Source: Ruminiclostridium herbifermentans (lineage in GTDB: Bacteria > Bacillota > Clostridia > Acetivibrionales > DSM-1351). From it: a stretch of DNA of 64,000 bases. The position numbers and the translations under genes were made by a program. The DNA lies in the NCBI RefSeq assembly GCF_005473905.2, contig NZ_CP061336.1, positions 62,001 through 126,000 of the forward strand, given 5' to 3'. How positions within the stretch are numbered: the first letter of the stretch is position 1; each line of letters opens with the position of its first letter. Below are positions 3,155 to 22,333 of this stretch, piece after piece. The notes below the pieces were generated by a model. That model had not been told where the DNA came from, did no database searches, and was given only the letters and a program-made list of their open reading frames with translations.

Positions 3155-3327
3155 ACCTCCGTTCAGACACGATATTTTATATTATCCTGCCACTTCTTTT
3201 ATTTGAGAAATGCACGACCCAAGCACTGAAAATAATATCCAAATACTTGGTGCCGCGCATTTCAATCTAGCTTACATTGTTAACTTGTTAAAAATCACAG
3301 GGATTATCAACAAAATTAAATTTATAA

Positions 3328-4305: not shown

Positions 4306-4671
4306 GGATATTTCCTCCAATCATAATTAACTCATATTTTTGAGTTTTCTTTTTACATTTAAAAGTATATGAAACTTGTACACATAAAAATACGGAAAAA
4401 GTCCCATTCTTTGTAGATATTTTTACTGAGCTTATTTTTTGCTATTTTGTTGGTTAAGATTTTTATGATTTTTGTATAAAATTTTACTATATGGGATAAA
4501 CTATATTAGTTTAACTTATTTTACTAATTTTTTTAAAACTCTGTTAGTAGGAAAAATAAATTTTACTCTTCGAGTTCAAAACAAGTACATAACATAAGTT
4601 GAAAGATACATAAATTAAATCATTATAAAAAACAACATATTTATTCTATATTATGATATGGGTACAAATAA
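4306..4671. other. Gene-free AT-rich spacer upstream of the transporter operon
   Basis: No credible ORF. This 366-bp stretch separates the sensor-associated binding protein from the transporter operon and should hold the transporter promoter, probably a target of the neighbouring YesN-type regulator. I could not identify a convincing -35/-10 pair or repeated operator. Confidence 0.5.
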
Positions 4672-7180: not shown

Positions 7181-8799
7181 TCTTCACCTTTACCTTGCAT
7201 CCTGTATTCCGATGGTGTACAATTCTGTGTTTTTTTAAATATGTAACTAAAATAATGGGAATCTAAATATCCTACTAAAAATCCAATTTCACTTATTTTT
7301 TTGCTTGAACATCTTAAATAATCTTTTGCTTTTTCCATTCGGATATCTGTTAGATATTCAATAAATGTCATGCCAGTTTCATGATTAAAAAGGGAACTAA
7401 AGTAGTTGGGACTTAGGTTAACCGTAGCTGCGACTTGATCTAGTGTAAGATCACTCATAGAATAATTAAGGTGCATATATTCCTTTGCACGTTCAATAAG
7501 ACTGGCATATCTTTTTTGACTATTCTTATTTCGAAGATCAATTGCTTCTTTTAGTATTGATTTATAAAATTTGCAGCAGTCGTCAAAACTAGAAAGATGA
7601 TCAATGATATTATTCATGTCCTTAAGAATGGTATCTATCTTTTCTTTTGGGTATTTCAATGTATTGAGGAATTTTACGATAGCTGAATATCCATCCATTA
7701 TAATATAATGACGGAAGATGGTTGATTTCATAGCATTAGAACCAAATCCATCAAAATAGCTGTCTACAAATTCATCTACATCATTAATTGTTCCCCTTTT
7801 TAAAAATTCTTCCAATAAATCTCTGTCAAGCTTCTCAAGATTTAACTCACTAACACTAATTCTGTTTCCTACTTGAGCCTTAATATTTCGTACATCATTA
7901 TAAGATAAGAACTGATCTCTGCTTTCAAAATAACGGAGGGAAAAAGCACTATTAGCATCAAGATAGGATTGCTGCATGTCCCGGATACGATGAACAACTC
8001 TGCCGATTCCTCCGAAATAATGTGTCTTGTTACCACAGATATCAATTAATAAATTGCAAAGTTCCTTAGTTAATTCTTTAATTTGCAAATCATTTTCACC
8101 CATAAGTATAAAAGCCCATCCATCCATACCGCGCTCAAATACTTTTATGTCGGGATATCTATTTAAAGCTTGAGTCATTCGAGTTTCACATTGTACTATT
8201 TCATTTGAATACTCGTACATATCCTCTTGACCTTTAAATTGAAATAGCATAACGCAGTAGGCTCTTGCTACCATATCAATTCCAAGTTCCTTTTCCTGCT
8301 CAATAATTTGTGAAAGAGACATTTTGCCACTAACTAATGCATTAAAAAAATCTGTTCTTTTTTCTCCTTGCTTCTGATAAACCAAAAGCTGATACTGTTC
8401 TAGTATCTGTTTATCTTTTCGTTCCTTTTCAATTGCTGAAGCTGCATTTTTTACTGCAGTAACCAGTTTATCGGATGTGATGGGCTTGAGCAGATATTCA
8501 CTGACACCAATATCAATTGCTTTTTGTGCATAACCAAAATCACTATATCCGCTTATAATTATGATTTTTAGCTGCGGCATTTCCTTTTTCAGTAACTTAC
8601 TTAATTCAAGACCGTCCATAAATGGCATTTTTATATCAGTAATCAGAATATCCGGCTGCTCTTTAATAATCATAGGATAAGCTAATTCGCCATCACTCTC
8701 GTCTCCTACAATTATGAAACCCTCGTCTTCCCAATGAATTTTGTTCTTGATACCTTCTCGTATTACAATTTCATCCTCTACTATAAAAACCTTATACAT
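7177..8799 (-). CDS. Response regulator with AraC-type DNA-binding domain, YesN-like
   Basis: A 540-residue regulator. The N-terminal receiver domain has the acidic pair Glu8/Asp9, phosphoacceptor Asp55 (LITDIKMPFMDG) and the KPI lysine near 107. A long linker region of about 300 residues is typical of YesN proteins. The C-terminal AraC-type double helix-turn-helix covers about 430-535 (AATVNLSPNYFSSLF and ISEIGFLVGYLDSHYFS). The ATG has AGGGGGAAATT upstream. It is the first gene of the sensor operon and the likely activator of the sugar transporter, possibly also of the arabinofuranosidase gene on the other side. Confidence 0.92.
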   Translation of the reverse strand: MYKVFIVEDEIVIREGIKNKIHWEDEGFIIVGDESDGELAYPMIIKEQPDILITDIKMPFMDGLELSKLLKKEMPQLKIIIISGYSDFGYAQKAIDIGVSEYLLKPITSDKLVTAVKNAASAIEKERKDKQILEQYQLLVYQKQGEKRTDFFNALVSGKMSLSQIIEQEKELGIDMVARAYCVMLFQFKGQEDMYEYSNEIVQCETRMTQALNRYPDIKVFERGMDGWAFILMGENDLQIKELTKELCNLLIDICGNKTHYFGGIGRVVHRIRDMQQSYLDANSAFSLRYFESRDQFLSYNDVRNIKAQVGNRISVSELNLEKLDRDLLEEFLKRGTINDVDEFVDSYFDGFGSNAMKSTIFRHYIIMDGYSAIVKFLNTLKYPKEKIDTILKDMNNIIDHLSSFDDCCKFYKSILKEAIDLRNKNSQKRYASLIERAKEYMHLNYSMSDLTLDQVAATVNLSPNYFSSLFNHETGMTFIEYLTDIRMEKAKDYLRCSSKKISEIGFLVGYLDSHYFSYIFKKTQNCTPSEYRMQGKGEE

Positions 8800-8905
8800 A
8801 ATTTCCCCCTAGAAATATTTTGATAAAGTATAATTTCAAAATTTATAATAAGATTAGCTGCTGAGAGTTTAACTTAGTAGGTTTTATAACGCCTAGATTC
8901 AAAAT

Positions 8906-8957
8906 GAAAATTTCTATTGAAAATTTCTATTGAAAATTTCTATTGAAAATTTCTATT
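8906..8957. repeat. Four tandem copies of a 13-bp repeat
   Basis: The unit GAAAATTTCTATT occurs four times head to tail without mismatch, followed by a diverged copy (GTAAGTTTCAATT). It lies about 110 bp upstream of the regulator start codon. It could be a slippage-prone microsatellite or repeated half-sites for a regulator. Confidence 0.9.
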
Positions 8958-8994
8958 GTAAGTTTCAATTTTAGATAAATTCCATTAGTATAAG

Positions 8995-9085
8995 CAGCGT
9001 GTAAGTTGGGCGGGAATTTTGTCACCGCCTGAAAACCAAAACGATATCTGCCACTTATAGAAGTGGAGGATACTTTTATGCCTCG
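8995..9085. mobile_element. Possible right-end scar of an IS200/IS605 TnpB element
   Basis: The stretch has a GGGCGG...CCGCC stem, a spacer, then the perfect hairpin CCACTT-ATAG-AAGTGG followed by GAGGATAC. Guide-RNA-bearing right ends of TnpB elements often carry such hairpins. No transposase or TnpB coding sequence remains nearby. The assignment rests on resemblance only; an unrelated structured leader is possible. Confidence 0.3.
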
Positions 9086-9167
9086 TTATACTGGGGATAA
9101 ATTAATAATATCACAATACTTGGTATGTTGTAAAAAATTTTTAGGTATAAAGTGTTAATTAATAGTA

Positions 9168-9196
9168 TTGACTTCATATTTTTTGAACATTAATAT
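9168..9196 (+). promoter_or_regulatory. Sigma-A-like promoter, probably for the GH51 gene
   Basis: TTGACT at 9168-9173 and TAATAT at 9191-9196 are separated by 17 bp. It points toward the arabinofuranosidase gene and would give a leader of roughly 300 nt that includes both 24-bp repeats. Confidence 0.5.
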
Positions 9197-9380
9197 GATT
9201 ATATTAAATTCATTCTTCAAGAATAATTGTAATATTAGTTTAAGAGAAGCTTTAAGTAAGTACAGAAGTATAAGCCAATATGCTCTAATATATTTTTGAA
9301 TATTTTGTACCAAATGAGAGTGATAGAAGTCAGCAATCCAAAGAATTTAGATTTTCCAAATAATATAATTATATTTTTTG

Positions 9381-9404
9381 CCCAAATGGGGCGTGGGAGG
9401 TTAG
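9381..9404 (+). repeat. 24-bp direct repeat, copy 1
   Basis: The sequence runs from CCCAAATGGGGCG to GGGAGGTTAG and is identical to 9475-9498. It carries a complete Shine-Dalgarno but is not followed by a usable start codon. Confidence 0.9.
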
Positions 9405-9472
9405 CAATAAAAAAATGTGGTTGTATGCTTTTAACAATGCGTACCTCCACGATATTATTAATAAAATTTTAG

Positions 9473-11011
<1,539 letters not shown>

Positions 11012-11019
11012 TTTATTTG

Positions 11020-11057
11020 ACTGCCCGAATTGGACACATTCGGGCAGTTAAATTTTG
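11020..11057. terminator. Terminator, probably bidirectional
   Basis: An 11-bp perfect stem (11020-11030 with 11038-11048, ACTGCCCGAAT) and a 7-nt loop are followed on the plus strand by TAAATTTT. It lies between the converging GH51 gene and the last gene of the minus-strand RiPP operon. Confidence 0.75.
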
Positions 11058-11077
11058 AATGGACTTACCCTTTTAAT

Positions 11078-12376
11078 CTACATGCTTACCATAACAGCCT
11101 CAAATAATAATTCACGTAATTCTTCATTTTTTAAAAATTCTGTTTCTATAATAACATTGCCAAAATCATAATCCTGCCAAGAGGATGCTAATATCTTCAC
11201 ATTTAGTCTATCGCGGTTTTCATATAACACTGTCCCAGGAAAAGGTGTACAAGAAGCTACAGAAACTTCTACTCCTGCTTTTTTAAGATGTTTCATTAAT
11301 TCTATGGTTTCTCTAATGGTTTCTTTATTATCACAATAATGACCGATTATGAAACTGGCAACCATATGGATACCTATCTTATTACCATATAGCAATCTTT
11401 GTATGGTTTCAGACAAATTAATTTTTTTGCCTATTTTATTAATTACTTCCTGTGATCCGCTTTCAATTCCTACATGTATTACATTACAATTAGTATCTTT
11501 TAGGTCGTCTAAATTTTTTTCTATCAGGGTATCACCTCTAGATTCAATTCTATAGCTAAACTTATATTCCAAATGCCTTAAAAGCTCTATAAATCTGTTG
11601 AAACGGCTTTGAATGGCTGTAAAAGTATCATCTAAAAAAACTACTTTATCTGTTTTTAATATATCTTTTAGATATATCATCTCACATATAATGTTTTCTG
11701 CACTTCTCATCCGGTACTTATTGCCGGACATACTTCTAGATGAACAATATATACAGTTTCCAGGACAACCACGGCTGGTAATCATAGTAAATGCAGTAGA
11801 ATAATTAGATGGATCTATTAACCCGATAGGTTGAAGAGGCAATGCATCTAATTTTCCGATGAATTTAAACTTTTCATTAATAATCACATTATCTTCTTCA
11901 ATATATGATACTCCTTCTACATATTTTAACGGGAATTGATCTGGATAATTTAAATGTTCTAATAATTTAAGAAAAGTAAATTCTCCTTCTCCTTTAATTA
12001 CATAATTTACTTTTGTATTTTTCAACATTTCTTCTTCATTAAATGTAGAATGAGGTCCTCCAGCAATTGTTATTCCATTAAATCCACTTTGTTTCGTTAT
12101 TTTCATAATCCGATTATAGAAAGGGGATGTTCTGGTATAAACTGAAAATCCTATCACTGAAGGATTCCAAGTATGTAAAATATTAATATATTCATTTTCT
12201 GATATATCTTCCACAAAAAAATCAATTATTTTTACTTTATATCCATGCATAATTAAAACGGATGCGATTGAAAGCAAACCAAGGTTAGGTGTTGATACGG
12301 TATTTTTAATTTTTTGTCTGCTAATCTTGTCCAAAGTGCAATTTACTAATAATATTCTTTCAAATTTTCTAACCAT
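11078..12376 (-). CDS. B12-binding radical SAM protein (RiPP cluster 1, second copy)
   Basis: A 433-residue protein with an N-terminal cobalamin-binding Rossmann-like domain (about 1-165, GGPHSTF and KGEGEFTF motifs) and a radical SAM domain with Cys204, Cys208 and Cys211 (RGCPGNCIYC). It continues with SGNKYRMRSAEN, a motif shared with the paralogue at 16907-18196. Such proteins in RiPP clusters often methylate unactivated carbons or rearrange side chains; the reaction here is unknown. I set the start at the ATG at 12376, preceded by GAGGTG, giving an 8-nt gap from the upstream stop; a longer frame to 12403 is less likely. Last gene of the operon. Confidence 0.85.
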   Translation of the reverse strand: MVRKFERILLVNCTLDKISRQKIKNTVSTPNLGLLSIASVLIMHGYKVKIIDFFVEDISENEYINILHTWNPSVIGFSVYTRTSPFYNRIMKITKQSGFNGITIAGGPHSTFNEEEMLKNTKVNYVIKGEGEFTFLKLLEHLNYPDQFPLKYVEGVSYIEEDNVIINEKFKFIGKLDALPLQPIGLIDPSNYSTAFTMITSRGCPGNCIYCSSRSMSGNKYRMRSAENIICEMIYLKDILKTDKVVFLDDTFTAIQSRFNRFIELLRHLEYKFSYRIESRGDTLIEKNLDDLKDTNCNVIHVGIESGSQEVINKIGKKINLSETIQRLLYGNKIGIHMVASFIIGHYCDNKETIRETIELMKHLKKAGVEVSVASCTPFPGTVLYENRDRLNVKILASSWQDYDFGNVIIETEFLKNEELRELLFEAVMVSM

Positions 12377-12384
12377 AATCCACC

Positions 12385-13641
12385 TCATATGTACATTTTG
12401 CAACTTATTGGGTCTTTAGTTAATAGATTTTTATGTTTAAAAAATGCACGTGCACGGCAGCCTCCTCTGCAAGTATATGAGTTGCTGCATGTATTACAGT
12501 CACTAATGTCAGCTATTGTTTTACTCCGATACTCCACTAACAAAGGTGAATGCTCCCATAAATTATTTAAGCTTTCCTCATGAATATCTCCAACAAGATT
12601 TTCCTCTTGGTTAAGTAGTGGACATAACATTACTTTTCCATTAGAATCAATATATAAACTATATACACCCATACCACAAAATCCAATATACTTATTTGAA
12701 TAAGATAAATAATACCTAGTTTTATCGGACCATATGTCCTTATTTTCATTAAAACAATTTTTTATTTTTATGATATCCTCATCTTTTATATCCAAAAAGT
12801 CATTTTTATTTTGATAAGTCTGATGGTAATTTATATAAGGACTTACTACTACTTTTATGTTCTTATAGTTTCTAACTAACTGTATAAAGTTATCTAATTC
12901 TTTAACATTGAATGAAGAAACAGTAAATGAGAGAGTAACGGCAAAACCATTACTTTCTAATAGCGGTAGGGCTGTAAGGATTCTACTAAAATTACCTTTC
13001 GTATTTCTAAAATTATCATGTGTTTTTTCACAGGCTCCATCCATACTTATTTGAATCTCATCTAGCCCCAATAACTTCAGTTTATTTATATTTTCATGAT
13101 TCAAATAGCTTCCGTTTGTATATAGTCGAATTTTAATATTTTTACTTTTGATGTATTCAACTAAATCGAAAAAATAAGAATTAATCATAGGTTCGCCACC
13201 AGTTAATTTTATCATATATACTCCAAGTGTGGCACAAATATCAGTTAGTTTGATCCAATCATCAAAAGTAAGTTCCAATTTATTTATATCTTCTGGAATA
13301 TAACAGTGCTTGCAATTTAAATTGCATCGTTTTGAAAGTTCAAAGAAAACTTCTTCTAAAGTCCATCTAGGCGTTAAATCAAAGATTTTATTTGACTTAT
13401 CAGTCACTAATATTCCCTTATCAATTAGCCTTTTAATTTCTGTATGACTGCCTTTATTTAATTGAGTAATTATATCAAACTTTCTCGCATTAAAAAGATC
13501 AAGTAAATAAGAAGCACCGATATCCAGAACTTCTCTGACGCCATCTTGATTAACTACAGAAATTTTCTTATCGATTCTTTTTTTTAATGTGATATTACTA
13601 TTAATAGTATAATCTTCTATTTTTATTTCATTATGATCCAT
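12385..13641 (-). CDS. RRE/radical SAM/SPASM peptide maturase (RiPP cluster 1)
   Basis: A 418-residue protein. Residues 1-95 resemble a winged-helix RiPP recognition element. The radical SAM domain follows with Cys106, Cys110 and Cys113 (SKRCNLNCKHC) and TGGEP. The C-terminal SPASM domain from about 322 has seven cysteines (CGMG, MLCP, CNTC, CRGGC, SC) for two auxiliary clusters. This architecture is that of sactipeptide and ranthipeptide maturases, which install thioether or C-C cross-links in a precursor peptide. The ATG has GGAGGTGAATT upstream, and the gene follows the exporter by 14 nt. A second protein of this class (15361-16695) in the same operon implies two modifications or two sites. 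Confidence 0.87.
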   Translation of the reverse strand: MDHNEIKIEDYTINSNITLKKRIDKKISVVNQDGVREVLDIGASYLLDLFNARKFDIITQLNKGSHTEIKRLIDKGILVTDKSNKIFDLTPRWTLEEVFFELSKRCNLNCKHCYIPEDINKLELTFDDWIKLTDICATLGVYMIKLTGGEPMINSYFFDLVEYIKSKNIKIRLYTNGSYLNHENINKLKLLGLDEIQISMDGACEKTHDNFRNTKGNFSRILTALPLLESNGFAVTLSFTVSSFNVKELDNFIQLVRNYKNIKVVVSPYINYHQTYQNKNDFLDIKDEDIIKIKNCFNENKDIWSDKTRYYLSYSNKYIGFCGMGVYSLYIDSNGKVMLCPLLNQEENLVGDIHEESLNNLWEHSPLLVEYRSKTIADISDCNTCSNSYTCRGGCRARAFFKHKNLLTKDPISCKMYI

Positions 13642-13655
13642 AATTCACCTCCATG

Positions 13656-15356
13656 TTATATTGCTTCCATACTGGAGTAAAAATCTCTATAGTGGCTGTT
13701 ATTGTTATATAATGATTCATGTGTATCTAAAAATATATGTTCCTTATCTTGAAAATATAATACTTTGTCACTGAGAGAAATATATGATAAATAGTGGTCT
13801 ATTACCATAATGGTTTTCTTGCCTTTCAATGCTTGGAGAATCTCGTATAAGGTTTCTCGTGAACGCTTATCAAAATTTGTACTACCTTCATCTATCATAA
13901 ATATATTACTATTTTTTTGAAGTGCTCTTGCTATAGCTACCTTTTGTATTTCTCCGCCAGATAGTTTTGAACCATTCTTGCCCACATCTAGGCATAAAAG
14001 TTTAGAATCTATCACTTTTTTAGCTATTTCATTTAATGAATCTGTTTTTTGAAGAAGTATATTATTTTCAATGGTATCCTGAAAAAGAAATTCCTTCTGC
14101 ATTACAATGCTGATATCTTCTCTGACTTTGTTTACAGTATCCTTATTAAGCAATAATCCATTAATAAATATTTCACCTTGGGTTGGCTCCAATAGTCCAG
14201 ATAAAATTCTAATCAATGTAGTTTTTCCAGTTCCGTTATCTCCTACTATGCTGATAAAATCTTTCTGATTAATTTGAAATGAAATATTTTTTAATACCTC
14301 ATAATCTTCATACTGAAAATATAATTTATTAACGGAGAATACAGGCACTTCGGTACACTTATCAAACGAGGGTAAAGGCTCTTTTATAGTTTCTGTCTCC
14401 TCATTCATATTTTTTTCGCGTTCAAAAAATGGAAGGAGCCTATTGTAAGATACCTTAACTTGCTTATATGCTATTAAGCTGTTTGATAACATAGCAGAAG
14501 GAGCTAATATATAATTGAGACTTGATAATACACTGATTAAAGAACCTAGTGTAATCTGTTCCAGTGAAATAAGAAAACTACCACTTAGTAGTATTATTAG
14601 AGGAAATAGTATACTTAATCCCCCTATAAATTTTTTAGACAGAAGTGTAATATTCATCAACCATTTGGTATTTCCTAAATAAGTTTTTAAAGTATTCACA
14701 TATCTGTTATATTCATAATTAAAACAATTGTAAATTTTCACTGTTTCACGGCTATCAAGACATTCATCAATCTGTTCAATAAATTTCTCACTGCTGTTTC
14801 TGAGTTTGATGCTTGCTTCTCCAATATTTTTGCCCATTTTCTTACTTAACAGGTAAAACAGGGGAGTAGCTACCAAACTTATCAGACCTAATGCAAAATG
14901 TATCCTGAAAATAACGATTATAACTATAAGGTACTCTGCTACACCCATTAAAAGTGCTATAAAATATTCTGCCCAGAAATTAATGACTGTATCAATATCC
15001 TGAGCTAACCTTGTAATAACTTCTCCTTTAGTAGCCTTTTTCATGGCTTTGTCCTCAGACTTTAAAAGAGTTGCCATTACACTTTTTTCCAATATTTTCT
15101 TAAATTCAATTGTATACTTAATAAATACTTTATTTGAAAAAATATCTGTTATCATGTACACTATAAATACTACTAAAATACCGACAACATAATAAGGTAA
15201 CTTATCAAATGAATTTTTTAAAATTATTTTATCTATTAAGTATTGATAACTTAACGGAATTATGATTGTGCATATATTGGCTATAGTCTGTAAGATAACA
15301 CTAAAACTAAGGAATGCAATATTTTTCTTTAGAAAAGACCTTATCAGTAATTTCAT
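13656..15356 (-). CDS. ABC exporter, fused permease and ATPase (RiPP cluster 1)
   Basis: A 566-residue half-transporter with about six membrane segments in residues 1-310 and a nucleotide-binding domain from about 340, with Walker A GDNGTGKTT, signature KLSGGE, Walker B NIFMIDEGS and H-loop IDHY. There is no N-terminal C39 peptidase domain, so leader removal must be done by another enzyme. It would work as a homodimer to export the mature peptide. It lies between the two SPASM maturase genes with spacings of 4 and 14 nt, clearly within the operon. Confidence 0.88.
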   Translation of the reverse strand: MKLLIRSFLKKNIAFLSFSVILQTIANICTIIIPLSYQYLIDKIILKNSFDKLPYYVVGILVVFIVYMITDIFSNKVFIKYTIEFKKILEKSVMATLLKSEDKAMKKATKGEVITRLAQDIDTVINFWAEYFIALLMGVAEYLIVIIVIFRIHFALGLISLVATPLFYLLSKKMGKNIGEASIKLRNSSEKFIEQIDECLDSRETVKIYNCFNYEYNRYVNTLKTYLGNTKWLMNITLLSKKFIGGLSILFPLIILLSGSFLISLEQITLGSLISVLSSLNYILAPSAMLSNSLIAYKQVKVSYNRLLPFFEREKNMNEETETIKEPLPSFDKCTEVPVFSVNKLYFQYEDYEVLKNISFQINQKDFISIVGDNGTGKTTLIRILSGLLEPTQGEIFINGLLLNKDTVNKVREDISIVMQKEFLFQDTIENNILLQKTDSLNEIAKKVIDSKLLCLDVGKNGSKLSGGEIQKVAIARALQKNSNIFMIDEGSTNFDKRSRETLYEILQALKGKKTIMVIDHYLSYISLSDKVLYFQDKEHIFLDTHESLYNNNSHYRDFYSSMEAI

Positions 15357-15360
15357 TAGA

Positions 15361-16695
15361 TTACCTCACCATTAAGTCTAATATACGTTTTTTATAAACA
15401 GCACAATTATTCTCTACACCATATAAATCATTTGTATTATTTAAAGCAATTGCCCTGCATCCACCAGCGCAGAAATACTTTAATTCACAGTCTTTACATT
15501 TATCTAAATCTCCTACCGAAAAGCTTTTAAATCTTTTTTTACTGTCTAATTTTATGTCCACCAGCGACTTTTCTTTTATATTTCCAAGAATAAGTTCTTT
15601 TTTATGAAGTGAAGGACATAAATATACATCTCCATTACAGTCAATACTTAAAAGATTATGATTTATGCCACAAGAGCATTTTCTATTTGTTGAATAAACT
15701 TCTCGGTTTAAATCAGATGCCACATCTAAGAGGAAATTGAATTTCCTATTCTGTTTATAATAGCTTACATAAGTTTCATAAATATATTCATATCCTTTAT
15801 CTACCCAGTTATAAAATTCTTGGAGGTCAAAATCATCTTCGTATTTTATAGCTCTACCATAAGGCACGAACCTATTAATATGTAATTGATATACTCCAAT
15901 ACTTTGGCAGAATTTTATCATATCAACGATATCTGGTTTATATTTTGGAGTAGGTGTCATGGCAATCGCCAGTTTGGAGTTGTCAATTTCACTGATGATT
16001 TTTGCATTATTAACAGCTTTTTCAAAACTACCAGCACCTCGATTCCTATCATGATATTCTGATATATCTGAATCAATTGAAATCTGAATACTGTCAACAA
16101 GCTGAAGTATATTTTTATATAATTCCGCATCACCTAAAGTACCATTTGTTAATAATTGTACTTTTCCATATTTATTACATAGCCTAATTATATCTAATAT
16201 GTCATACCTTAAAAGAGGTTCTCCTCCTGTTATAATTATCTTTTTAATTGGCTCGGTCATAGTAGATAATAAACTTTCAATTTCCTCAATGGAAAGTTCA
16301 CTTTTAGAGTCAAATGTTCCTGAATTGGCATAACAATATACACATTTTAGATTGCAACGATTTGTAACCTTTAACCACAAACCGTTACCTGTAAAATCAT
16401 CATTTGGTACAATATTTTTTTCTTCACTAGAACTGTCTTTTAAGAAACCTAATTCTATCAACTCATCTAGAAATTTATTAACATCGTCTACCAATAATTT
16501 TTTTGGTATACAATAATGATTACTTAATTTAGCAAATAGTTCATCTCTGCTCATTTTAGGTGATTCCTGCAAAAATTCAGCAATAACAAGGCCTGAACTA
16601 TTTAATTTACGGTATCTAGCTTGCTCTGTATTGATAAGTAATCCTATATTATTATGTTTCTTAATTATTACATCCTTATTTAATTCAATGACCAT
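15361..16695 (-). CDS. RRE/radical SAM/SPASM peptide maturase (RiPP cluster 1)
   Basis: A 444-residue protein. Residues 1-90 form a PqqD-like RiPP recognition element (winged-helix pattern ending DELIELGFL). The radical SAM domain has Cys114, Cys118 and Cys121 (NRCNLKCVYC) and TGGEPLLRYD. The SPASM domain runs from about 345, with cysteines in CSCG, YLCP, CKDC, FCAGGC and NCAV. I chose the ATG at 16695, which has GGAGG six bases upstream inside the end of the 61-aa gene. An upstream in-frame start at 16737 would overlap that gene completely. It is a likely catalyst of thioether or carbon-carbon cross-links in the precursor peptide. Confidence 0.88.
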   Translation of the reverse strand: MVIELNKDVIIKKHNNIGLLINTEQARYRKLNSSGLVIAEFLQESPKMSRDELFAKLSNHYCIPKKLLVDDVNKFLDELIELGFLKDSSSEEKNIVPNDDFTGNGLWLKVTNRCNLKCVYCYANSGTFDSKSELSIEEIESLLSTMTEPIKKIIITGGEPLLRYDILDIIRLCNKYGKVQLLTNGTLGDAELYKNILQLVDSIQISIDSDISEYHDRNRGAGSFEKAVNNAKIISEIDNSKLAIAMTPTPKYKPDIVDMIKFCQSIGVYQLHINRFVPYGRAIKYEDDFDLQEFYNWVDKGYEYIYETYVSYYKQNRKFNFLLDVASDLNREVYSTNRKCSCGINHNLLSIDCNGDVYLCPSLHKKELILGNIKEKSLVDIKLDSKKRFKSFSVGDLDKCKDCELKYFCAGGCRAIALNNTNDLYGVENNCAVYKKRILDLMVR

Positions 16696-16696
16696 G

Positions 16697-16882
16697 TTAA
16701 ACCTCCTCTTTAATATTAATTCTGTGAATCTTTTCAATCATTTTTTCTGGGCACCATACCTTCAATCCATATTCACTGTCAGTTTCAACAAATATACCGT
16801 TTTGACCCTCTATTTCAAAATATCCCTTGTCCACACCACAGAATACTAAATTACCTTTTAATTCAACAACTATTCTATCCAT
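16697..16882 (-). CDS. 61-residue protein of unknown function within RiPP cluster 1
   Basis: A short but convincing gene: AAGGAG lies six bases before its ATG and its stop is one base from the next start codon. The protein starts MDRIVVELKGN, ends INIKEEV, has two cysteines (Cys15, Cys44) and looks like a small beta-rich domain. I do not recognise it. Possible roles are an accessory binding subunit for one of the radical SAM proteins or an immunity factor. It lacks the leader-plus-Gly/Cys-rich-core look of a precursor. Confidence 0.65.
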   Translation of the reverse strand: MDRIVVELKGNLVFCGVDKGYFEIEGQNGIFVETDSEYGLKVWCPEKMIEKIHRINIKEEV

Positions 16883-16906
16883 AATATCTCCTTCTCAATA
16901 TTTTAT

Positions 16907-18196
16907 TTACATCAGCTCTTGCATTTCATAAAATATTTCCTGTAACTCTTCTCTAGTCAAATATTTTGTCGATATGACAGGCTGTACAAGATCATAAGTT
17001 GACCAATTTGTACTTTCCAACTTTACACCCAGCTTGTCTCTCTCTTCATATAAAGTAGTACCCGGAAATGGAGTATTAACGCCAATACCAACCACAGCAC
17101 CGTAGTTATTTTTAAATTTTCGAGCTAAGTCAATGGTCAACCTTATGGTGTCTTTTGTGTCGCAGTGATGTCCAATAATAAAAGAGCACATTACCTGCAT
17201 TCCCTTATTTGACATATATGCCAATAAATCTTCTGACTTTTGAAGGCTAATGTTCTTATTTATTTTGTTAATTACCTCTTGAGATCCACTTTCAATACCG
17301 ATATGAACAGAAGTACATCCAGCATCATACATATTGTCAATCATCTCATAACTTAAAATATCTGTTCTGGAATCACATCTCCATACGATATCCAATTTAT
17401 GTTTTTTGATAAGTTCACAGAATTGATTAAGTCTGTTTCGATTGGCAGTAAAAGTATCATCTAAAAATGCGAAATAACGCTCTCCCTTATATTTATATTT
17501 GTAATAAATTTCACTAAATACATTTTCTGCACTACGCATTCTATATTTATTGCCTGAGAGTGCCGATGAAGCACAATAAATACACCTTCCCGGACATCCT
17601 CTACTGGTGATAATAAGTTGCTTTATATTATAAATCTCTTTCTTTTTGAGATTCATATCACCCCATGGAAGGCTATCTAATTTTACAATAAATTTTCTGT
17701 TATTGGTGTGGACTATGTCTCCGTTTTTATTTCTAAAAGATAACCCATCAATTTCTTCAAGTTTTAGGGTATTATAATTTAAAGCTTCCAGAAGCTCAAC
17801 GAAAGTCATCTCACCTTCCCCACGGCTCACAAAATCAACTGTTGAATGCTCCAAAGCTTCATCTGGACAAAATGTGACATGAGGCCCTCCTAATATAATT
17901 ATGATTTTTGGGAAGGCGTTTTTAATTAATTCTGTTAGCTTTATAACAACATTAAAGTTCTCCGTATAGGAACTTATTCCAATAATATCAGGATTAAAAT
18001 CAGATACATAATTTAGAAATTCACTTTTTTTCATACTACAGGCAAATAGATCGAGGTAATCCACCTCGTATCCATGCATCTTTAAATAGCTACCAATTGA
18101 AATAATACCTAAGGGTGGCATAGTGGTTTTTTCAGAATAACCAACCTTTTTGGTTTTATTGTTATTGGGCATAATCAGCAATATTTTTTTAAAAAT
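16907..18196 (-). CDS. B12-binding radical SAM protein (RiPP cluster 1, first copy), probable ATT start
   Basis: About 429 residues. The N-terminal cobalamin-binding domain (GGPHVTF, SRGEGEMTF) is followed by a radical SAM domain with SRGCPGRCIYC (Cys201, Cys205, Cys208 in my numbering) and SGNKYRMRSAEN as in the paralogue. The first ATG-like codons in frame (TTG at 18181, ATG at 18172) would cut off the first beta strand. Reading upstream gives FKKILLIMPNNN, the normal family N-terminus, after an ATT codon at 18194-18196. A GGGGGG six bases before it fits as the ribosome-binding site. The start is therefore probably ATT, 1 nt after the stop of the RRE gene. Confidence 0.82.
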   Translation of the reverse strand: MFKKILLIMPNNNKTKKVGYSEKTTMPPLGIISIGSYLKMHGYEVDYLDLFACSMKKSEFLNYVSDFNPDIIGISSYTENFNVVIKLTELIKNAFPKIIIILGGPHVTFCPDEALEHSTVDFVSRGEGEMTFVELLEALNYNTLKLEEIDGLSFRNKNGDIVHTNNRKFIVKLDSLPWGDMNLKKKEIYNIKQLIITSRGCPGRCIYCASSALSGNKYRMRSAENVFSEIYYKYKYKGERYFAFLDDTFTANRNRLNQFCELIKKHKLDIVWRCDSRTDILSYEMIDNMYDAGCTSVHIGIESGSQEVINKINKNISLQKSEDLLAYMSNKGMQVMCSFIIGHHCDTKDTIRLTIDLARKFKNNYGAVVGIGVNTPFPGTTLYEERDKLGVKLESTNWSTYDLVQPVISTKYLTREELQEIFYEMQELM

Positions 18197-18197
18197 A

Positions 18198-18473
18198 CTA
18201 ATCCCCCCAAAACATATCTAGATTAGAAACAACTCCAGCTTCGATTAGCGCTTTAATGGCTATTAAGGTTTTATCTTCAGATATATTATATTTTTCTTTA
18301 ATCAGATCACATATGATTTCTACGGAATCCTCATCATTAATAATTTTCCAAAGTTTAGTAGCATCTTGGTTTAATATAACCTTATTACCATCATTTTTTA
18401 TTATAATAGCGTAACCCTCATCCTCTTTCCAAACATAAGTTGTTCTATGCAAGATATCGCTCTTATTAATCAT
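18198..18473 (-). CDS. Stand-alone RiPP recognition element (PqqD-like) protein
   Basis: A 91-residue protein with the PqqD-like winged-helix pattern: an N-terminal beta hairpin, VILNQDATKLWKIIND near residues 31-47, helix VEIICDLIKEKY, then LIAIKALIEAGVV. Proteins of this family bind the leader of a RiPP precursor and present it to the modifying enzymes. It is the first biosynthetic gene downstream of the precursor, separated from it by a strong hairpin. Its stop codon runs into the start region of the B12-radical SAM gene, so the two are coupled. Confidence 0.85.
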   Translation of the reverse strand: MINKSDILHRTTYVWKEDEGYAIIIKNDGNKVILNQDATKLWKIINDEDSVEIICDLIKEKYNISEDKTLIAIKALIEAGVVSNLDMFWGD

Positions 18474-18525
18474 ACTTTTAGATGAACGGTTATTTTACTC
18501 ACGAGAGAGCAGCCATATGAGACTA

Positions 18526-18541
18526 GTTTACAGTTGTAAAC
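18526..18541 (-). other. Second small hairpin overlapping the attenuator stem
   Basis: GTTTACA-GT-TGTAAAC is a perfect 7-bp inverted repeat. It shares 18537-18541 with the large stem, so both cannot form at once. Confidence 0.55.
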
Positions 18542-18577
18542 GAATTAGGTGCATCATATCTGCACCTAATTCGTTTA
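18537..18577 (-). terminator. Strong hairpin between precursor and maturation genes (attenuator or RNA-stability element)
   Basis: A perfect 17-bp stem (18537-18553 with 18561-18577; AAACGAATTAGGTGCA inside) encloses a 7-nt loop. There is no long U-run after it on the minus strand, so it may be a leaky terminator or a 3' stabiliser that makes the precursor transcript far more abundant than the enzyme transcripts. It overlaps the smaller hairpin at 18526-18541, so alternative folding is possible. Confidence 0.8.
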
Positions 18578-18616
18578 TGTAGGTAAGCTATCATCTGACA
18601 ACTCATTGAAAAGTTA

Positions 18617-18754
18617 TCATGTTGGACCAGGTAATGGACCTATCATGGCAATAACTATACCTATACCAAATCCAGTATTGCAGTTAAAACCACAAATTGC
18701 TTCCTGTGCAGCTGATTCTAAACTTTCGCTTTTAGGTGCTTCATAAACGTTCAT
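18617..18754 (-). CDS. RiPP precursor peptide, 45 residues
   Basis: A short gene with a very strong ribosome-binding site (GGGAGGTGAACTAG before the ATG). The peptide has a polar, acidic leader (MNVYEAPKSESLESAAQEA) and a hydrophobic core from about residue 20 with two cysteines in ICGFNC, then TGFGIGIVIAMIG and a proline-rich tail LPGP-T. Leader charge, core composition and position as the first gene of an operon with RRE, SPASM and B12-radical SAM proteins identify it as the substrate. Cys21 and Cys25 are the only possible thioether donors. The Ile, Val and Pro residues are plausible methylation sites for the B12 enzymes. No cleavage motif is obvious; after QEA near residue 19 is a guess. 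I do not recognise the family. Confidence 0.85.
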   Translation of the reverse strand: MNVYEAPKSESLESAAQEAICGFNCNTGFGIGIVIAMIGPLPGPT

Positions 18755-19700
18755 CTAGTTCACCTCCCTGCTATTAAATTTATGTAAATCAATTGAAATT
18801 GATATACATACTACATAAATTAAAATGAATATACAATAATGTAAGAAAATTCTATAAATTAATAATAAATTCAAATGTATAACTCTGTCAATAAATTTCT
18901 TAAAAATTTTATTTTTTTTTACTTTTTACAATAATATTTGATTTTTATAGATATTATAAAATAACAACTATTTACTTTATGTCCATAGTAATGAAGTTTA
19001 TTAGCATTTTCTATGGAATGATGTTAAAATAAATGCAATATTTTGTCTGAGTAAATAGAAATGAGTTGAAATTAGTTGTTATTGAAAGAATAGATGTGAA
19101 TCATAAACAAATAAAGGAGTTGGATAAAATTTCCATATGTATATTATTACCGAATAGATAAGGGACATTGGTAAATAAGACATTTTTACTATTATAAAAT
19201 TAATTCCCAGTTTTTCTTGACTTTAGAATTGCGAATGCTATATTATAACAATATACATTTTATACACATAAACATTAAAGTGGGTGAATATCAAGTATAT
19301 CTAATTATATCTCGTGTACATATTTACAAGTAAATTAAAACTATAATAATAACAAAGAAAGACTTCATCAGTATTTGGGAGTAAACACCACTTTATGTTT
19401 ATAAAGTAGTCATGGAACGGTTAGAGTAATCTATAACTTAAACCCATTTTGTTTCACAGATAAAATAATATGAATTTAAAAAATTACAATACTGCAATCT
19501 AATATTTAGTTTAAGTAGACTGATAAAATAATATAGTTACCATTAAGTTCACCCCCCGGGTTATGAATGTTTTATATTTAATTACACTTAACTAATCGGA
19601 CAAAAAAATAATATAGAAGAAAACTTATACAAATGAAAATCATGGTTATATGAATTTCACATATCCTTGAAGCATACCTATTGAAGGAGGGTTAGAGATA
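18755..19700. other. 946-bp gene-free divergent intergenic region
   Basis: Very AT-rich. It holds the precursor promoter (18862-18891), a possible plus-strand promoter (TTGACT 19217-19222, TATATT 19239-19244), a small hairpin ACTTTAT-GTTT-ATAAAGT (19390-19407) and a ten-codon mini-ORF with a precursor-like ribosome-binding site on the minus strand (19511-19543). I see no regulator gene and no other credible ORF. Confidence 0.6.
18862..18891 (-). promoter_or_regulatory. Sigma-A-like promoter of the RiPP precursor operon
   Basis: On the minus strand TTGACA (18886-18891) and TATTAT (18862-18867) are separated by 18 bp, about 100 bp upstream of the precursor ATG. No other good pair was seen in this interval. 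Confidence 0.6.
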
Positions 19701-20552
19701 ATGAATGAACTGCTAAGTATAAAAAATTTATCCAAAAACTATAATCATTTTACATTAGATAGTATTAGCTTCAGCCTACCAGAGGGTTATATTATGGGCC
19801 TTATCGGACCAAATGGTGCTGGCAAAACCACAACTATTAAATTAATATTAAATATGCTTAAAAAGTCTTCCGGAGATATTAAAATATTTGGTAAGGATCA
19901 CATTTTGGAAGAAAAAGAAATCAAGCAGAATTTAGGCGTTGTTTTTGATTCTAACTACTTTGTTGATGAATGGAAAATGGCAGATGTAGAAAAAGCTATA
20001 GGCAAGTTTTACATAAATTGGAGCACAAGTAAATTTTATTATTACCTAGATAGGTTTAAGGTAAATAAATCAAAGAGAGTAAAAGAACTTTCCAAAGGTA
20101 TGCAGATGAAACTAATGTTAGCCTGCGCATTCTCCTATGATGCTAAATTATTAATTTTAGATGAGCCAACTAGTGGATTAGATCCAGTATCAAGAGATGA
20201 ATTGTTGGATATACTTTCTGAATTTATTAAAGACGGCAAGCGTAGTGTTTTATTTTCAACACATATTACATCTGACTTGGATAAAATAGCTGATTATATT
20301 ACATTTCTTAATGAAGGAAAACTGTTATATTCTGGTTTAAAAGATAAATTTATCAAATCTTTTTCCATTGTGAAAGGTGAAATCAAAGAACTAACGAGTG
20401 ATTTAAAACAATCTCTAATCAGTTTGCGAGAATCTGCAACTGGTTTTGAAGGACTTATTTATACTAATGATTTACCTAAGGGGTCATCAGTTAATACGGA
20501 GCCTGCAACTATAGATGATATTATAGTTTTTATAAACAGGAGAGGAGCATAA
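19701..20552 (+). CDS. ABC transporter ATP-binding protein
   Basis: A 283-residue single-domain ATPase of the YtrB/BcrA type: Walker A GPNGAGKTT near residue 35, signature ELSKGMQMK, Walker B LLILDEPTSGLD and H-loop FSTHI, then a C-terminal extension of about 70 residues. Length and extension are usual. The ATG has GGAGG upstream. It pairs with the permease that starts 3 nt downstream. Position next to a divergent RiPP operon suggests self-immunity or peptide efflux, but a general stress exporter is equally possible; the GntR regulator common beside YtrB-like ATPases is absent. Confidence 0.85.
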   Translation: MNELLSIKNLSKNYNHFTLDSISFSLPEGYIMGLIGPNGAGKTTTIKLILNMLKKSSGDIKIFGKDHILEEKEIKQNLGVVFDSNYFVDEWKMADVEKAIGKFYINWSTSKFYYYLDRFKVNKSKRVKELSKGMQMKLMLACAFSYDAKLLILDEPTSGLDPVSRDELLDILSEFIKDGKRSVLFSTHITSDLDKIADYITFLNEGKLLYSGLKDKFIKSFSIVKGEIKELTSDLKQSLISLRESATGFEGLIYTNDLPKGSSVNTEPATIDDIIVFINRRGA

Positions 20553-20555
20553 TAT

Positions 20556-21206
20556 ATGACAGACATAATAAAAAGTACTTTGCTAGATGCTTATCTGTTG
20601 AAATATTATAAGAAATCCATTTGTTTTGTACTTTTAATACCTGTTTTCTTTGTATTAATTAATCGTTCTTTAATATCTGGTATATCATTTTCTATGACTT
20701 TTATGGCTATGACATCAGGTTATACCTTCAGTATATCAGAGAAAAACAATATGAATCGACTTTATGGTATTTTACCTGCTTCTAAATCTGACATGGTCAT
20801 AGGAAGATACTTTCTTCTTCTATGTTTAGGAATTTTTACATTATTGTTTTCTTTGATTATGGATTCCATTGCGTTAAATGCTATAAATGTTTCAATAACT
20901 ATTGGTGATATAGTAGCATCTAGTTTAGTTGGAATTTGTTTATATATCATTTACATAAGCTTTCAATTACCAGGTTACTATAAATTTGGTCCTATTAGGG
21001 GTCGTGCATTTATGTATATCCCAATTGTGGGGTTTCTAGCAATCCTTTTAATACTGGATAAGAAAAACGCTGATTTCTCCTTTGTATTTAGATTTATAAG
21101 CGAAAATCCCCTGTTATTTATTATATGTTTATTAATTTTACTTATTGGGCTATATGCTAGTTCTATTATTATAAGTACCCATATATTAAAAAATAAAGAA
21201 GATTAA
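20556..21206 (+). CDS. ABC-2 type transporter permease
   Basis: A 216-residue membrane protein with six predicted hydrophobic segments and the motif EKNNMNRLYGILPASKSDMV near residues 65-84, typical of the ABC-2 permeases that partner YtrB/BcrA-type ATPases. It starts 3 nt after the ATPase stop and should form the membrane channel of that exporter. The substrate is unknown. Confidence 0.8.
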   Translation: MTDIIKSTLLDAYLLKYYKKSICFVLLIPVFFVLINRSLISGISFSMTFMAMTSGYTFSISEKNNMNRLYGILPASKSDMVIGRYFLLLCLGIFTLLFSLIMDSIALNAINVSITIGDIVASSLVGICLYIIYISFQLPGYYKFGPIRGRAFMYIPIVGFLAILLILDKKNADFSFVFRFISENPLLFIICLLILLIGLYASSIIISTHILKNKED

Positions 21207-21217
21207 AAGGAGTAATT

Positions 21218-21313
21218 ATGTCTAAATTTACTATCTTTTGCTTGATATTTGCAGGTATAATAGGTGTATATCGCATAGTACGGTTTATTAAAACAAGAAA
21301 AAATAATATTTAG
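21218..21313 (+). CDS. Small membrane protein, 31 residues
   Basis: Translation gives MSKFTIFCLIFAGIIGVY followed by a basic tail (RIVRFIKTRKNN): one transmembrane helix with positive-inside character. AAAGGAG lies seven bases before the ATG, and the gene sits 11 nt after the permease in the same direction. It is probably an accessory subunit or a small membrane peptide. Function is unknown. Confidence 0.5.
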   Translation: MSKFTIFCLIFAGIIGVYRIVRFIKTRKNNI

Positions 21314-21330
21314 GTAATATGAGGGTATAA

Positions 21331-22215
21331 ATGCAACATATTTTTATTATTAACCCAAAGGCTGGAAAAGGGAAGGCCCTTGAGATGATACCGATTATAC
21401 GAGAGTATTTCAAGGATAAAGCTGAGAAATTCATAATACAAATTACAGACCATCCGGGTCATGCAACGGAGATTGCAAGAAAGTATTCTGCTATTGAAGA
21501 TTGCAGGATTTATTCTGTTGGTGGAGATGGAACTATAAATGAGGTTGTAAATGGGATTGCAGGAACACAGTCAGCATTAGGCGTTATACCAGCAGGGTCT
21601 GGAAATGATTTTATACGGAGTTTAACTTCTGCATATGACATAAAGGATATACTAGTTAGAACAATTAAGGGAGAAGAAAAAAGCATTGACTTAGGTAAGG
21701 TTAATGACAATTATTTTATAAATATATCATCAATAGGGTTTGATGCTGATGTTGTTTTTAATGCTGATAAATTCAAAAAGGTTCCAGGAATTACAGGAAG
21801 TATGGCATATGTAATTTCAATTATTTATACCGTTATTAAAAAGAAATTTTGTAAAGTAAAGATAAATATTGATGATAGGAGAATGGAGAATAAAATACTT
21901 CTTGCAGCTATTGCAAATGGCAGATTTTATGGTGGTGGCATGCTTGCTGCACCTGAGGCAAAAATTGATGATGGACTATTTGATATTTGCTTAGTAAGTG
22001 AAGCAAGTAGATTTAAGATTTTGAGGTTATTTCCTATGTATATTAAAGGACAACATGGGAAATTAGATGAAGTTGAGTTTTTGAGAGGGAAAAAAATTCA
22101 AATAGAAAGTGACGAAGTACTTAGTTTAAACATAGACGGTGAAATATTTTCCTCTAGTAAAATAGCTTTTGAAATAATTGAAAAGGGAATAAAGGTGGTT
22201 GTGCCAGCTATTTAA
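21331..22215 (+). CDS. Diacylglycerol kinase family lipid kinase (DgkB/YegS type)
   Basis: A 294-residue cytosolic lipid kinase. The N-terminal catalytic domain begins IFIINPKAGKGK and has the nucleotide-binding motif SVGGDGTINEVVNG near residues 64-77 and GSGNDFIRS near 90. The C-terminal beta domain has NISSIGFDADV and a late LNIDGE motif. Such enzymes phosphorylate diacylglycerol or related lipids during phospholipid recycling. It follows the 31-aa gene by 17 nt and may share its transcript; GAGGG precedes the ATG. Confidence 0.88.
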   Translation: MQHIFIINPKAGKGKALEMIPIIREYFKDKAEKFIIQITDHPGHATEIARKYSAIEDCRIYSVGGDGTINEVVNGIAGTQSALGVIPAGSGNDFIRSLTSAYDIKDILVRTIKGEEKSIDLGKVNDNYFINISSIGFDADVVFNADKFKKVPGITGSMAYVISIIYTVIKKKFCKVKINIDDRRMENKILLAAIANGRFYGGGMLAAPEAKIDDGLFDICLVSEASRFKILRLFPMYIKGQHGKLDEVEFLRGKKIQIESDEVLSLNIDGEIFSSSKIAFEIIEKGIKVVVPAI

Positions 22216-22333
22216 CTGGGTAAATTCATTGAAGTGCTTTGAAATTTGATAAAAGTTGATATATGATGATTATATACATGAGGAAATTATATAAGATATC
22301 TATATTATAGGAAAGACATTAAAGGAGTACCAA

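What the first reader, a model, noticed from the sequence alone, without database searches (positions are those of the whole stretch)
11078..18754. Apparently undescribed RiPP cluster combining two B12-radical SAM and two RRE/SPASM radical SAM enzymes on one 45-residue precursor
Seen: a strong-RBS 45-codon gene (18617-18754) at the head of a co-directional operon encoding a stand-alone RRE protein, two B12-radical SAM proteins, two RRE+radical SAM+SPASM proteins, a 61-aa unknown and an ABC exporter. The core has only two cysteines (ICGFNC) followed by a Gly/Ile/Val/Pro-rich tail. Known: SPASM maturases install thioether or C-C links; B12-radical SAM enzymes methylate or rearrange unactivated carbons. 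Inferred: a peptide with one or two cross-links plus C-methylations or related changes. I do not recognise this precursor or this enzyme combination from a named class.
Basis: partly seen in the sequence, partly recalled or inferred. Interest (0 to 1): 0.88.

Follow-up and report, generated by a model that had tools for sequence, protein, structure and literature searches.

The report
Radical-SAM peptide cluster with small partner
A bacterium carries an eight-gene operon that probably makes a small, heavily modified peptide for export, and one of its unknown genes belongs to an apparently undescribed family that sits beside vitamin-B12 radical enzymes in several different kinds of peptide gene cluster.

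Summary
A 45-codon peptide gene with a strong ribosome site heads an operon: RRE, B12-radical SAM 1, 61-aa unknown, RRE+radical SAM+SPASM, ABC exporter, second radical SAM/SPASM (no RRE detected), B12-radical SAM 2. The precursor has no match in 10 other genomes of the genus or in plasmids; no listed NCBIfam enzyme model reaches its cut-off. My reading: a sactipeptide-like RiPP in which the SPASM enzymes thioether-link the two cysteines (compare thuricin CD) and the B12 enzymes modify the Gly/Ile/Val tail. No chemistry was tested. The surprise is the 61-aa protein: a model built without it recovers it (2e-7), Pfam and NCBIfam lack the family, and relatives stand beside one clade of B12-radical SAM enzymes in all six clusters of that clade that I read, among them a class II lanthipeptide cluster and one with the same RRE-B12-small-SPASM order but another precursor. 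In 58 genomes of the order it occurs in exactly the four with the B12 enzyme (partly circular). I propose a class-independent partner of a B12-radical SAM tailoring module.

The parts
18617..18754 (-). precursor peptide gene, 45 aa; Cys21 and Cys25, Gly/Ile/Val/Pro tail
   Evidence: strong ribosome site, 1 of 4 among 106 small ORFs; no Pfam/NCBIfam family
18862..18891 (-). promoter-like site TTGACA-18-TATTAT (11 of 12) upstream of the precursor
   Evidence: consensus match only, total number as in shuffles
18537..18577 (-). 17-bp hairpin without T-run between precursor and RRE, possible read-through or mRNA-stabilising element
   Evidence: fold of 18525-18640, z -7.1, 0 of 200 shuffles as good; arms checked
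18198..18473 (-). stand-alone RRE (PqqD-like), 91 aa
   Evidence: PF05402 2.4e-5, 25.0 bits over cut-off 23.4; 37% over 62 aa to the RRE of L014
16907..18181 (-). B12-binding radical SAM enzyme 1, 424 aa (TTG start as listed; true start unsure), CPGRCIYC
   Evidence: PF02310 7e-28, PF04055 1.6e-22; motif
16697..16882 (-). 61-aa protein, member of an apparently undescribed small-protein family; proposed B12-radical SAM partner
   Evidence: held-out HMM 2.1e-7 of 2963 ORFs; no Pfam or NCBIfam family for it or six relatives over cut-off
15361..16695 (-). RRE + radical SAM + SPASM enzyme (ATG start, 444 aa; listed frame 15361-16737 is 458 aa), proposed main cross-linking enzyme
   Evidence: PF05402 3.6e-8, PF04055 5.1e-25, PF13186 1.1e-8; 7-Cys SPASM motif
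13656..15356 (-). ABC exporter, 566 aa, no peptidase domain seen
   Evidence: of 23 Pfam families listed only PF00664 and PF00005 exceed their cut-off, and none is a peptidase
12385..13641 (-). radical SAM + SPASM enzyme, 418 aa, RRE not detected
   Evidence: PF04055 1.2e-22, PF13186 3.7e-9; 7-Cys motif; SkfB best solved relative 1.2e-20
11078..12403 (-). B12-binding radical SAM enzyme 2 (likely ATG start at 12376), nearest to enzyme 1, CPGNCIYC
   Evidence: PF02310 7e-19, PF04055 7.9e-21; tree; start

Best explanation
A RiPP cluster whose product is a sactipeptide-like peptide with extra radical tailoring. Shown: the genes, their domains, intact iron-sulfur motifs and operon layout. Inferred: the stand-alone RRE and the RRE of the 458-aa enzyme bind the ~20-residue leader. 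The two SPASM enzymes together join Cys21 and/or Cys25 to residues of the C-terminal tail by thioether links (S-Calpha most likely), giving a hairpin, perhaps with one enzyme as main catalyst as for TrnC/TrnD of thuricin CD. The two B12-radical SAM enzymes, in which no RRE was detected, act on unactivated carbons of the aliphatic tail (C-methylation most likely), helped by the 61-aa partner protein. The ABC protein exports the peptide; the leader protease is encoded outside the operon. Expected masses: -2 Da per thioether, +14 Da per methyl.
For: Domains and motifs. Both SPASM enzymes have the full 7-Cys motif; their best solved relatives are 5wgg for the 458-aa enzyme (2.2e-23; that this entry is the thioether enzyme CteB is recalled) and SkfB for the 418-aa enzyme (1.2e-20). 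The sactipeptide maturase model StsB scores second and first in NCBIfam. A review gives sactipeptide leaders of 8-29 and cores of 26-44 residues, most with donor cysteines in the N-terminal part of a hairpin (PMC8326336, passages); a core starting near Cys21 would be about 25-27 residues, at the lower edge. Thuricin CD uses two SPASM enzymes in one complex, of which only TrnC has a canonical RRE in an AlphaFold 3 model (PMC12093266, passages), resembling the pair here. The same genome has an AlbA-like enzyme (220 bits, below its cut-off of 850) with a CxxCxxCxxC peptide and a related B12-radical SAM enzyme. ApyD, among the nearest named RiPP relatives, C-methylates Tyr Cbeta (PMC10635010, passages). 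The RRE-B12-small-SPASM order recurs in L014 with another precursor. All nine candidate precursors that I chose by eye are Gly/Ala/Val/Ile/Leu-rich in the C-terminal half (0.7-8.5% of 295 baseline ORFs reach each value). The genome has a cobalamin riboswitch over the cut-off.
Against: None of the NCBIfam models listed (best 25 per protein) reaches its cut-off with any of the four enzymes, so the reaction type is open; the 458-aa enzyme scores highest with WgkB (model name rSAM_WgK_link), not with a sactipeptide model. The B12 enzymes score highest with HpnJ and BchE, which rearrange or cyclise rather than methylate (recalled). Two cysteines are few for a hairpin. The aliphatic theme rests on peptides picked by eye, and plain hydrophobicity does not set them apart (2-57% of baseline). 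The whole operon was seen in one genome only.
Confidence: 0.5

Rival explanations
1. The SPASM enzymes make non-alpha thioethers (ranthipeptide), C-C links or cyclopropylglycine at Val/Ile rather than sactionine links, and some cysteines may stay free or form a disulfide.
For: 5wgg (CteB, a ranthipeptide enzyme; identity recalled) is the best solved relative of the 458-aa enzyme; WgkB and PapB models score high; Asn24, Asn26 and Thr27 next to Cys25 are of the residue kinds used as acceptors in known ranthipeptides (PMC8326336, passages); TvgB turns Val of TVGG repeats into cyclopropylglycine (PMC9062424, abstract, passages and section 4) and the tail here is Gly/Ile/Val rich; the 418-aa enzyme scores second with the mycofactocin maturase model.
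Against: Only two cysteines (SCIFFs have six in 45 residues), no Asp or Glu after Cys21 and no NxxC; no TVGG repeat; the related cluster L012 is AlbA-like.
Confidence: 0.3
2. The B12-radical SAM enzymes cross-link, epimerise or rearrange residues instead of methylating them.
For: HpnJ and BchE are the top NCBIfam matches, both non-methylating (recalled); PbsB, a B12-radical SAM enzyme, makes a C-C cross-link (PMC12257519, passages).
Against: ApyD, PhpK and the glutamine C-methyltransferase models also match strongly, and methylation is called the most common outcome (PMC11659888, start of abstract in the listing); PbsB acts on phenolic rings, and the core here has two Phe but no Tyr or Trp.
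Confidence: 0.3
3. The 61-aa family is an immunity protein or a regulator of the cluster, not an enzyme partner.
For: Small proteins in bacteriocin operons are often immunity proteins (general knowledge); its fold and function are unknown; window B12 enzyme 2 and the first of three in L013 have no small gene directly beside them.
Against: It sits directly beside the B12 enzyme for 7 of 9 genes of the clade (in all 6 clusters) and for none of the 5 genes outside it in the tree, although the peptides differ; a doubled version in two clusters and two copies among three B12 genes in L013 go with the enzyme.
Confidence: 0.2
4. The 45-codon ORF is not the precursor, or is a chance ORF, and the true substrate lies elsewhere.
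For: No homologue found.
Against: Strong ribosome site, hairpin after it, position at the operon head; none of the 6 ORFs of 20 aa or more in 18755-19700 has a purine-rich ribosome site.
Confidence: 0.04

Closest known systems
Thuricin CD (two-enzyme sactipeptide, TrnC/TrnD)
   Same: two radical SAM/SPASM enzymes, one with and one apparently without a canonical RRE; short leader; N-terminal core cysteines followed by an aliphatic tail (precursor sequence of thuricin CD recalled)
   Different: one precursor instead of two, C-x3-C instead of three cysteines, and two B12-radical SAM enzymes plus stand-alone RRE and 61-aa protein, none of which the passages read mention
Aminopyruvatide apy cluster (ApyD)
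   Same: B12-radical SAM enzyme of the HpnJ/BchE-like group acting on a RiPP precursor
   Different: ApyD contains an RRE; works beside a P450 and an MNIO; no SPASM enzyme and no 61-aa partner in the passages read
Subtilosin/SKF sactisynthases AlbA and SkfB
   Same: radical SAM with SPASM or twitch domain; SkfB is the best solved relative of the 418-aa enzyme
   Different: 418-aa enzyme scores 92 of 850 (AlbA) and 82 of 300 bits (SkfB); no B12 enzymes in those pathways (recalled)
Polytheonamide-type proteusins (PoyC B12-radical SAM)
   Same: B12-radical SAM modification of an aliphatic-rich peptide
   Different: 45-aa peptide without any family hit, no LanM-like dehydratase in the operon, RiPP C-methyltransferase model TIGR03975 scores 94 and 68 bits against a cut-off of 282
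Cluster L014 (G030) of this study
   Same: RRE, B12-radical SAM, small protein, RRE/SPASM enzyme in the same order; ABC exporter
   Different: precursor of up to 77 aa with three cysteines, CPBP protease, aminotransferase-like gene and a 793-aa radical SAM protein; one B12 enzyme of this clade

Membership tests
RiPP biosynthetic cluster | short precursor gene beside modifying enzymes and leader-binding RRE | tested here: met
RiPP biosynthetic cluster | precursor is modified and leader removed | not testable with these tools
   needs mass spectrometry; no peptidase found in the operon
Sactipeptide | S-Calpha thioether links in the product | not testable with these tools
   needs MS/MS or NMR
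Sactipeptide | RRE/radical SAM/SPASM maturase with intact cluster motifs | tested here: met
   458-aa enzyme
Sactipeptide | donor cysteines in N-terminal part of the core, short leader | tested here: met
   Cys21 and Cys25 of 45, criteria from PMC8326336 passages; leader end not known
Sactipeptide | maturase passes a curated sactipeptide maturase model | tested here: not met
   StsB 136 and 148 bits against 625; AlbA and SkfB below cut-off for the 418-aa enzyme and not among the 25 shown for the 458-aa enzyme
SCIFF/ranthipeptide | six cysteines in about 45 residues | tested here: not met
   two cysteines; SCIFF maturase model 106 against 425 bits for the 458-aa enzyme
Class II lanthipeptide | LanM-type synthetase | tested here: not met
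   none among the eight operon proteins; present in relative L027
Proteusin | characteristic long leader and PoyC-type methyltransferase | tested here: not met
   no family for the 45-aa precursor; TIGR03975 below cut-off
B12-dependent radical SAM enzymes | B12-binding domain plus radical SAM domain with CxxxCxxC | tested here: met
   both proteins
B12-dependent radical SAM methyltransferase | methyl transfer | not testable with these tools
   nearest models HpnJ, BchE, ApyD, PhpK, all below cut-off
Small B12-radical SAM neighbour family (defined here) | sequence similarity to the four-member model | tested here: met
   2.1e-7 with the window protein held out
Small B12-radical SAM neighbour family (defined here) | physical or functional partnership with the enzyme | not testable with these tools
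   only gene neighbourhood and genome co-occurrence

The most novel reading that the evidence does not exclude
The 61-aa protein and its relatives are an obligate, class-independent partner of one clade of B12-radical SAM enzymes: a portable two-gene tailoring module that has been plugged into sactipeptide-like, class II lanthipeptide and M50-peptidase/aminotransferase peptide clusters to modify aliphatic tails, and that stands in for a leader-binding domain of the enzyme by presenting the hydrophobic core. (Outside the clade, the enzyme of L028 has a fused RRE and no small gene; that of L012 has neither.)
Probability: 0.35. Interest if true: 0.75.

Novelty: new variant of a known kind. Interest (0 to 1): 0.55.

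Why it matters
If right, it gives B12-radical SAM peptide chemistry a small genetic handle for genome mining that does not depend on RiPP class, and may help in reconstituting enzymes without an RRE of their own. The cluster itself would yield a peptide combining thioether cross-links with carbon tailoring.

Tried and rejected
Precursor in plasmids and in 10 other genomes of the genus: nothing. B12 enzyme 1 in genome contigs gave two distant loci, L002 and L003, used as outgroups; neither holds the small gene (443 ORFs). In viral contigs nothing. In plasmids one Rhizobium record at 1e-60, 33% identity, without small protein. SPASM enzymes in plasmids: nothing at 1e-30. Phylum search: of 398 genomes only the own one at 1e-120 (that draw does not list the other carriers). 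Family of G219: 1 of 59, G219 itself. Family of G318: 2 of 32, G318 and G283.

AlphaFold without alignment was poor: 61-aa protein pLDDT 56, five strands; N-terminus of the 418-aa protein pLDDT 35.5. I therefore ran no fold search. No Rfam family at gathering score in 7000-24000 of the window.

I expected a B12 enzyme in the enteropeptin sactipeptide pathway from memory; the terms B12 and cobalamin do not occur in the paper looked at, so I dropped it. A remembered 'TigB/TigE' pathway was not found by the searches and is not used. I considered the hairpin as a terminator and rejected it: no T-run, not listed by the terminator scan. Weak small-protein matches in G226 (0.0024, inside a 739-aa frame) and G249 (0.004, 39-aa frame with a stop) are taken as chance.
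Full report
What is there. The minus strand of 11078-18754 holds eight co-directional genes. A 45-codon gene (18617-18754) with the ribosome site GGGAGGTG heads them. Then follow a 91-aa PqqD-like RRE protein, a B12-binding radical SAM protein, a 61-aa protein, an RRE+radical SAM+SPASM protein, an ABC exporter, a second radical SAM/SPASM protein and a second B12-binding radical SAM protein (Pfam). CxxxCxxC motifs are intact in all four enzymes and both SPASM domains have the seven-cysteine pattern. Gaps after the RRE are 16, 24, 1, 4 and 14 nt, so one transcript is likely. The 458-aa frame probably starts at ATG 16695 and the last gene at ATG 12376, each behind a better ribosome site than the listed TTG. 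For the first B12 enzyme I could not settle the start.

Is the small gene real? Of 106 first-ATG ORFs of 35-70 aa in the window, 4 have a strong ribosome site 4-10 nt upstream: the precursor, the 61-aa gene and two that pass Pfam cut-offs (FeoA, FeoB-associated). A 17-bp hairpin without T-run separates precursor and RRE (z -7.1, 0 of 200 shuffles as good). None of the 6 ORFs of 20 aa or more in 18755-19700 has a purine-rich ribosome site. The peptide has no Pfam or NCBIfam family, no match in 72,556 plasmid records and none in the 10 other genomes of the genus searched.

Which chemistry? None of the NCBIfam models listed (best 25 per protein) reaches its cut-off with any of the four enzymes, so the reactions are inferred. 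For the SPASM enzymes, StsB (sactipeptide maturase) is the top NCBIfam model for the 418-aa protein and second, after WgkB, for the 458-aa protein. The best solved relatives are SkfB (418 aa, 1.2e-20) and 5wgg (458 aa, 2.2e-23; that 5wgg is CteB is recalled). Thuricin CD is a close functional parallel: TrnC and TrnD act as one complex, and in an AlphaFold 3 model only TrnC has a canonical RRE (PMC12093266, passages). Here the 458-aa enzyme has a PqqD hit and the 418-aa enzyme has none. The peptide's dimensions roughly fit sactipeptides as reviewed in PMC8326336 (passages), the core being at the short end. For the B12 enzymes the order of NCBIfam scores is HpnJ, BchE, then ApyD or PhpK. ApyD methylates Tyr Cbeta (PMC10635010, passages), but PbsB, another B12-radical SAM enzyme, makes a C-C cross-link (PMC12257519, passages), so methylation is likely, not certain. 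The two B12 enzymes of the window are each other's nearest relatives in the tree (42% identity, support 92/90, not starred by the tool), consistent with duplication inside the cluster. No peptidase domain was seen in the exporter; the leader protease must lie elsewhere. A cobalamin riboswitch over the cut-off elsewhere in the genome suggests that the host handles B12.

The 61-aa protein. Reading the surroundings of relatives of B12 enzyme 1 showed a similar small gene beside it in other genomes: L013, L014, L015, L026, L027. A profile built from four of them (L014, two of L013, L027) and run over 2963 six-frame ORFs of nine loci finds the window protein at 2.1e-7, and a doubled version at 2.2e-6 in L026 and 1.4e-4 in L015. 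It finds nothing up to E 1 in L012, L028 and L029 or in L002 and L003. Pfam has no family over cut-off for the window protein (best 0.18) or for six relatives (best 0.017); NCBIfam has none for the window protein or the same six.

How tight is the link? The tree has 14 B12-radical SAM genes: window 2, L012, L013 3, L014, L015, L026, L027, L028, L029, L002, L003. Seven have the small gene directly beside them, and all 7 are among the 9 genes of one clade (support 100/98). The two clade members without it (window enzyme 2, first of L013) lie in clusters that hold it; the 5 genes outside the clade have none in the stretch searched. L028 is only 6.2 kb long, so a small gene beyond its end would be missed; its enzyme has its own PqqD domain (38.7 bits), whereas that of L012 has neither RRE hit nor small gene. 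In 58 genomes of the order, the small family (E <= 0.01) and the B12 enzyme (E <= 1e-60) occur in the same 4 genomes (G000, G003, G030, G049). In 391 genomes of the class the small family is strong in 4 (G000, G003, G219, G318) and weak, probably chance, in 2; the B12 profile reaches 1e-100 in 5, the same 4 plus G283. This is partly circular, because the small proteins were found beside these enzymes and the profiles were built from them; what is not circular is that no convincing copy turned up away from the enzyme. These are small numbers.

The clusters differ in kind. L014 has RRE, B12 enzyme, small protein and RRE/SPASM enzyme in the window's order (SPASM enzymes 31% identical over 464 aligned positions, 1.6e-60; RREs 37% over 62 aa) but a three-cysteine precursor, a CPBP protease (Pfam), an aminotransferase-like gene and another radical SAM protein. 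L027 is a class II lanthipeptide cluster: its peptide passes LchA2/BrtA2 (58.4 against 26 bits) and its synthetase passes LanM (724 against 304 bits). L013, L015 and L026 have an M50 peptidase (Pfam for L026; others by eye), transporters and an aminotransferase-like gene (by eye), with very hydrophobic small ORFs in L013 and L015. L012, a second locus of the window's own genome, pairs a CxxCxxCxxC peptide with an AlbA-like SPASM enzyme (220 bits, cut-off 850) and a more distant B12 enzyme, without the small gene. So the B12 enzyme plus small protein looks like a module that moves between RiPP kinds. The candidate precursors, nine chosen by eye, share a C-terminal half rich in Gly, Ala, Val, Ile and Leu; each value is reached by 0.7-8.5% of 295 ORFs of those loci, while plain hydrophobicity separates them poorly (2-57%). 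I read this, cautiously, as the likely target of the B12 enzyme.

What is not shown. No product, no enzyme activity, no complex. The fold of the small protein is unknown: without an alignment AlphaFold gave five strands at pLDDT 56, too weak to compare. Whether the 418-aa enzyme has an RRE is open. The full operon was seen once: the 418-aa enzyme is in 1 of 11 genomes of the family at 1e-40, the 458-aa enzyme in 1 of 391 of the class at 1e-60 (the L014 genome is not shown in that draw).

Literature. I searched the open-access library with ten queries; from the listings and the passages read I saw no description of this operon or of a small partner protein for B12-radical SAM enzymes. PMC4289311, a survey of RiPPs in anaerobes (passages), lists sactipeptide loci; the terms B12 and cobalamin do not occur in its main text. 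Most subscription journals are not held, so this is weak evidence of novelty.

I went through the fields against the calls and added (small gene absent from L002 and L003; NCBIfam for six relatives; Pfam for L028, L012 and two small window ORFs).

Verdict. A real, rare RiPP cluster of a known general kind, with an uncommon enzyme set, and a small-protein family, new to the libraries searched, that deserves the attention more than the precursor does.

Noticed in passing
L012 (G000:C1:4005000-4024900), 7750-12243 -: Second RiPP-like locus of the same genome: 42-aa peptide with CxxCxxCxxC (10775-10903), AlbA-like SPASM enzyme, B12-radical SAM enzyme, subtilase (Pfam) and ABC genes (by eye), next to recombinase-like genes (13861-16438, by eye), so possibly mobile.
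   Followed up: partly
L027 (G318:C47), 913-10378 +: Class II lanthipeptide cluster (LanM and LchA2-type peptide pass curated cut-offs) that also encodes a B12-radical SAM enzyme, its small neighbour and a 797-aa protein with a weak SPASM match.
   Followed up: partly
L013, L015, L026: Three related clusters with M50 peptidase, ABC transporter, SDR-like, B12-radical SAM, small protein (doubled in two), glycosyltransferase-like, nucleotidyltransferase/AMP-binding (Pfam for L026) and aminotransferase-like genes, plus very hydrophobic 41-55 aa ORFs in L013 and L015; peptide class unknown.
   Followed up: partly
L028 (G283:C114), 4464-6134 -: B12-radical SAM protein with a fused N-terminal PqqD/RRE domain (38.7 bits, cut-off 23.4), near a contig end: a fused counterpart of stand-alone RRE plus enzyme.
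   Followed up: partly
window 19701-21206 +: Divergent ABC ATPase and ABC-2 permease upstream of the operon (Pfam); could be immunity or unrelated.
   Followed up: partly
window 34649-34858 + and 37581-37754 +: FeoA and FeoB-associated Cys-rich small genes (Pfam), the other two small ORFs of the window with strong ribosome sites; ordinary.
   Followed up: yes
G000:C1:123241-123377 + (window 61241-61377): Sub-threshold cobalamin riboswitch match (24.1 bits, cut-off 31.5).
   Followed up: no
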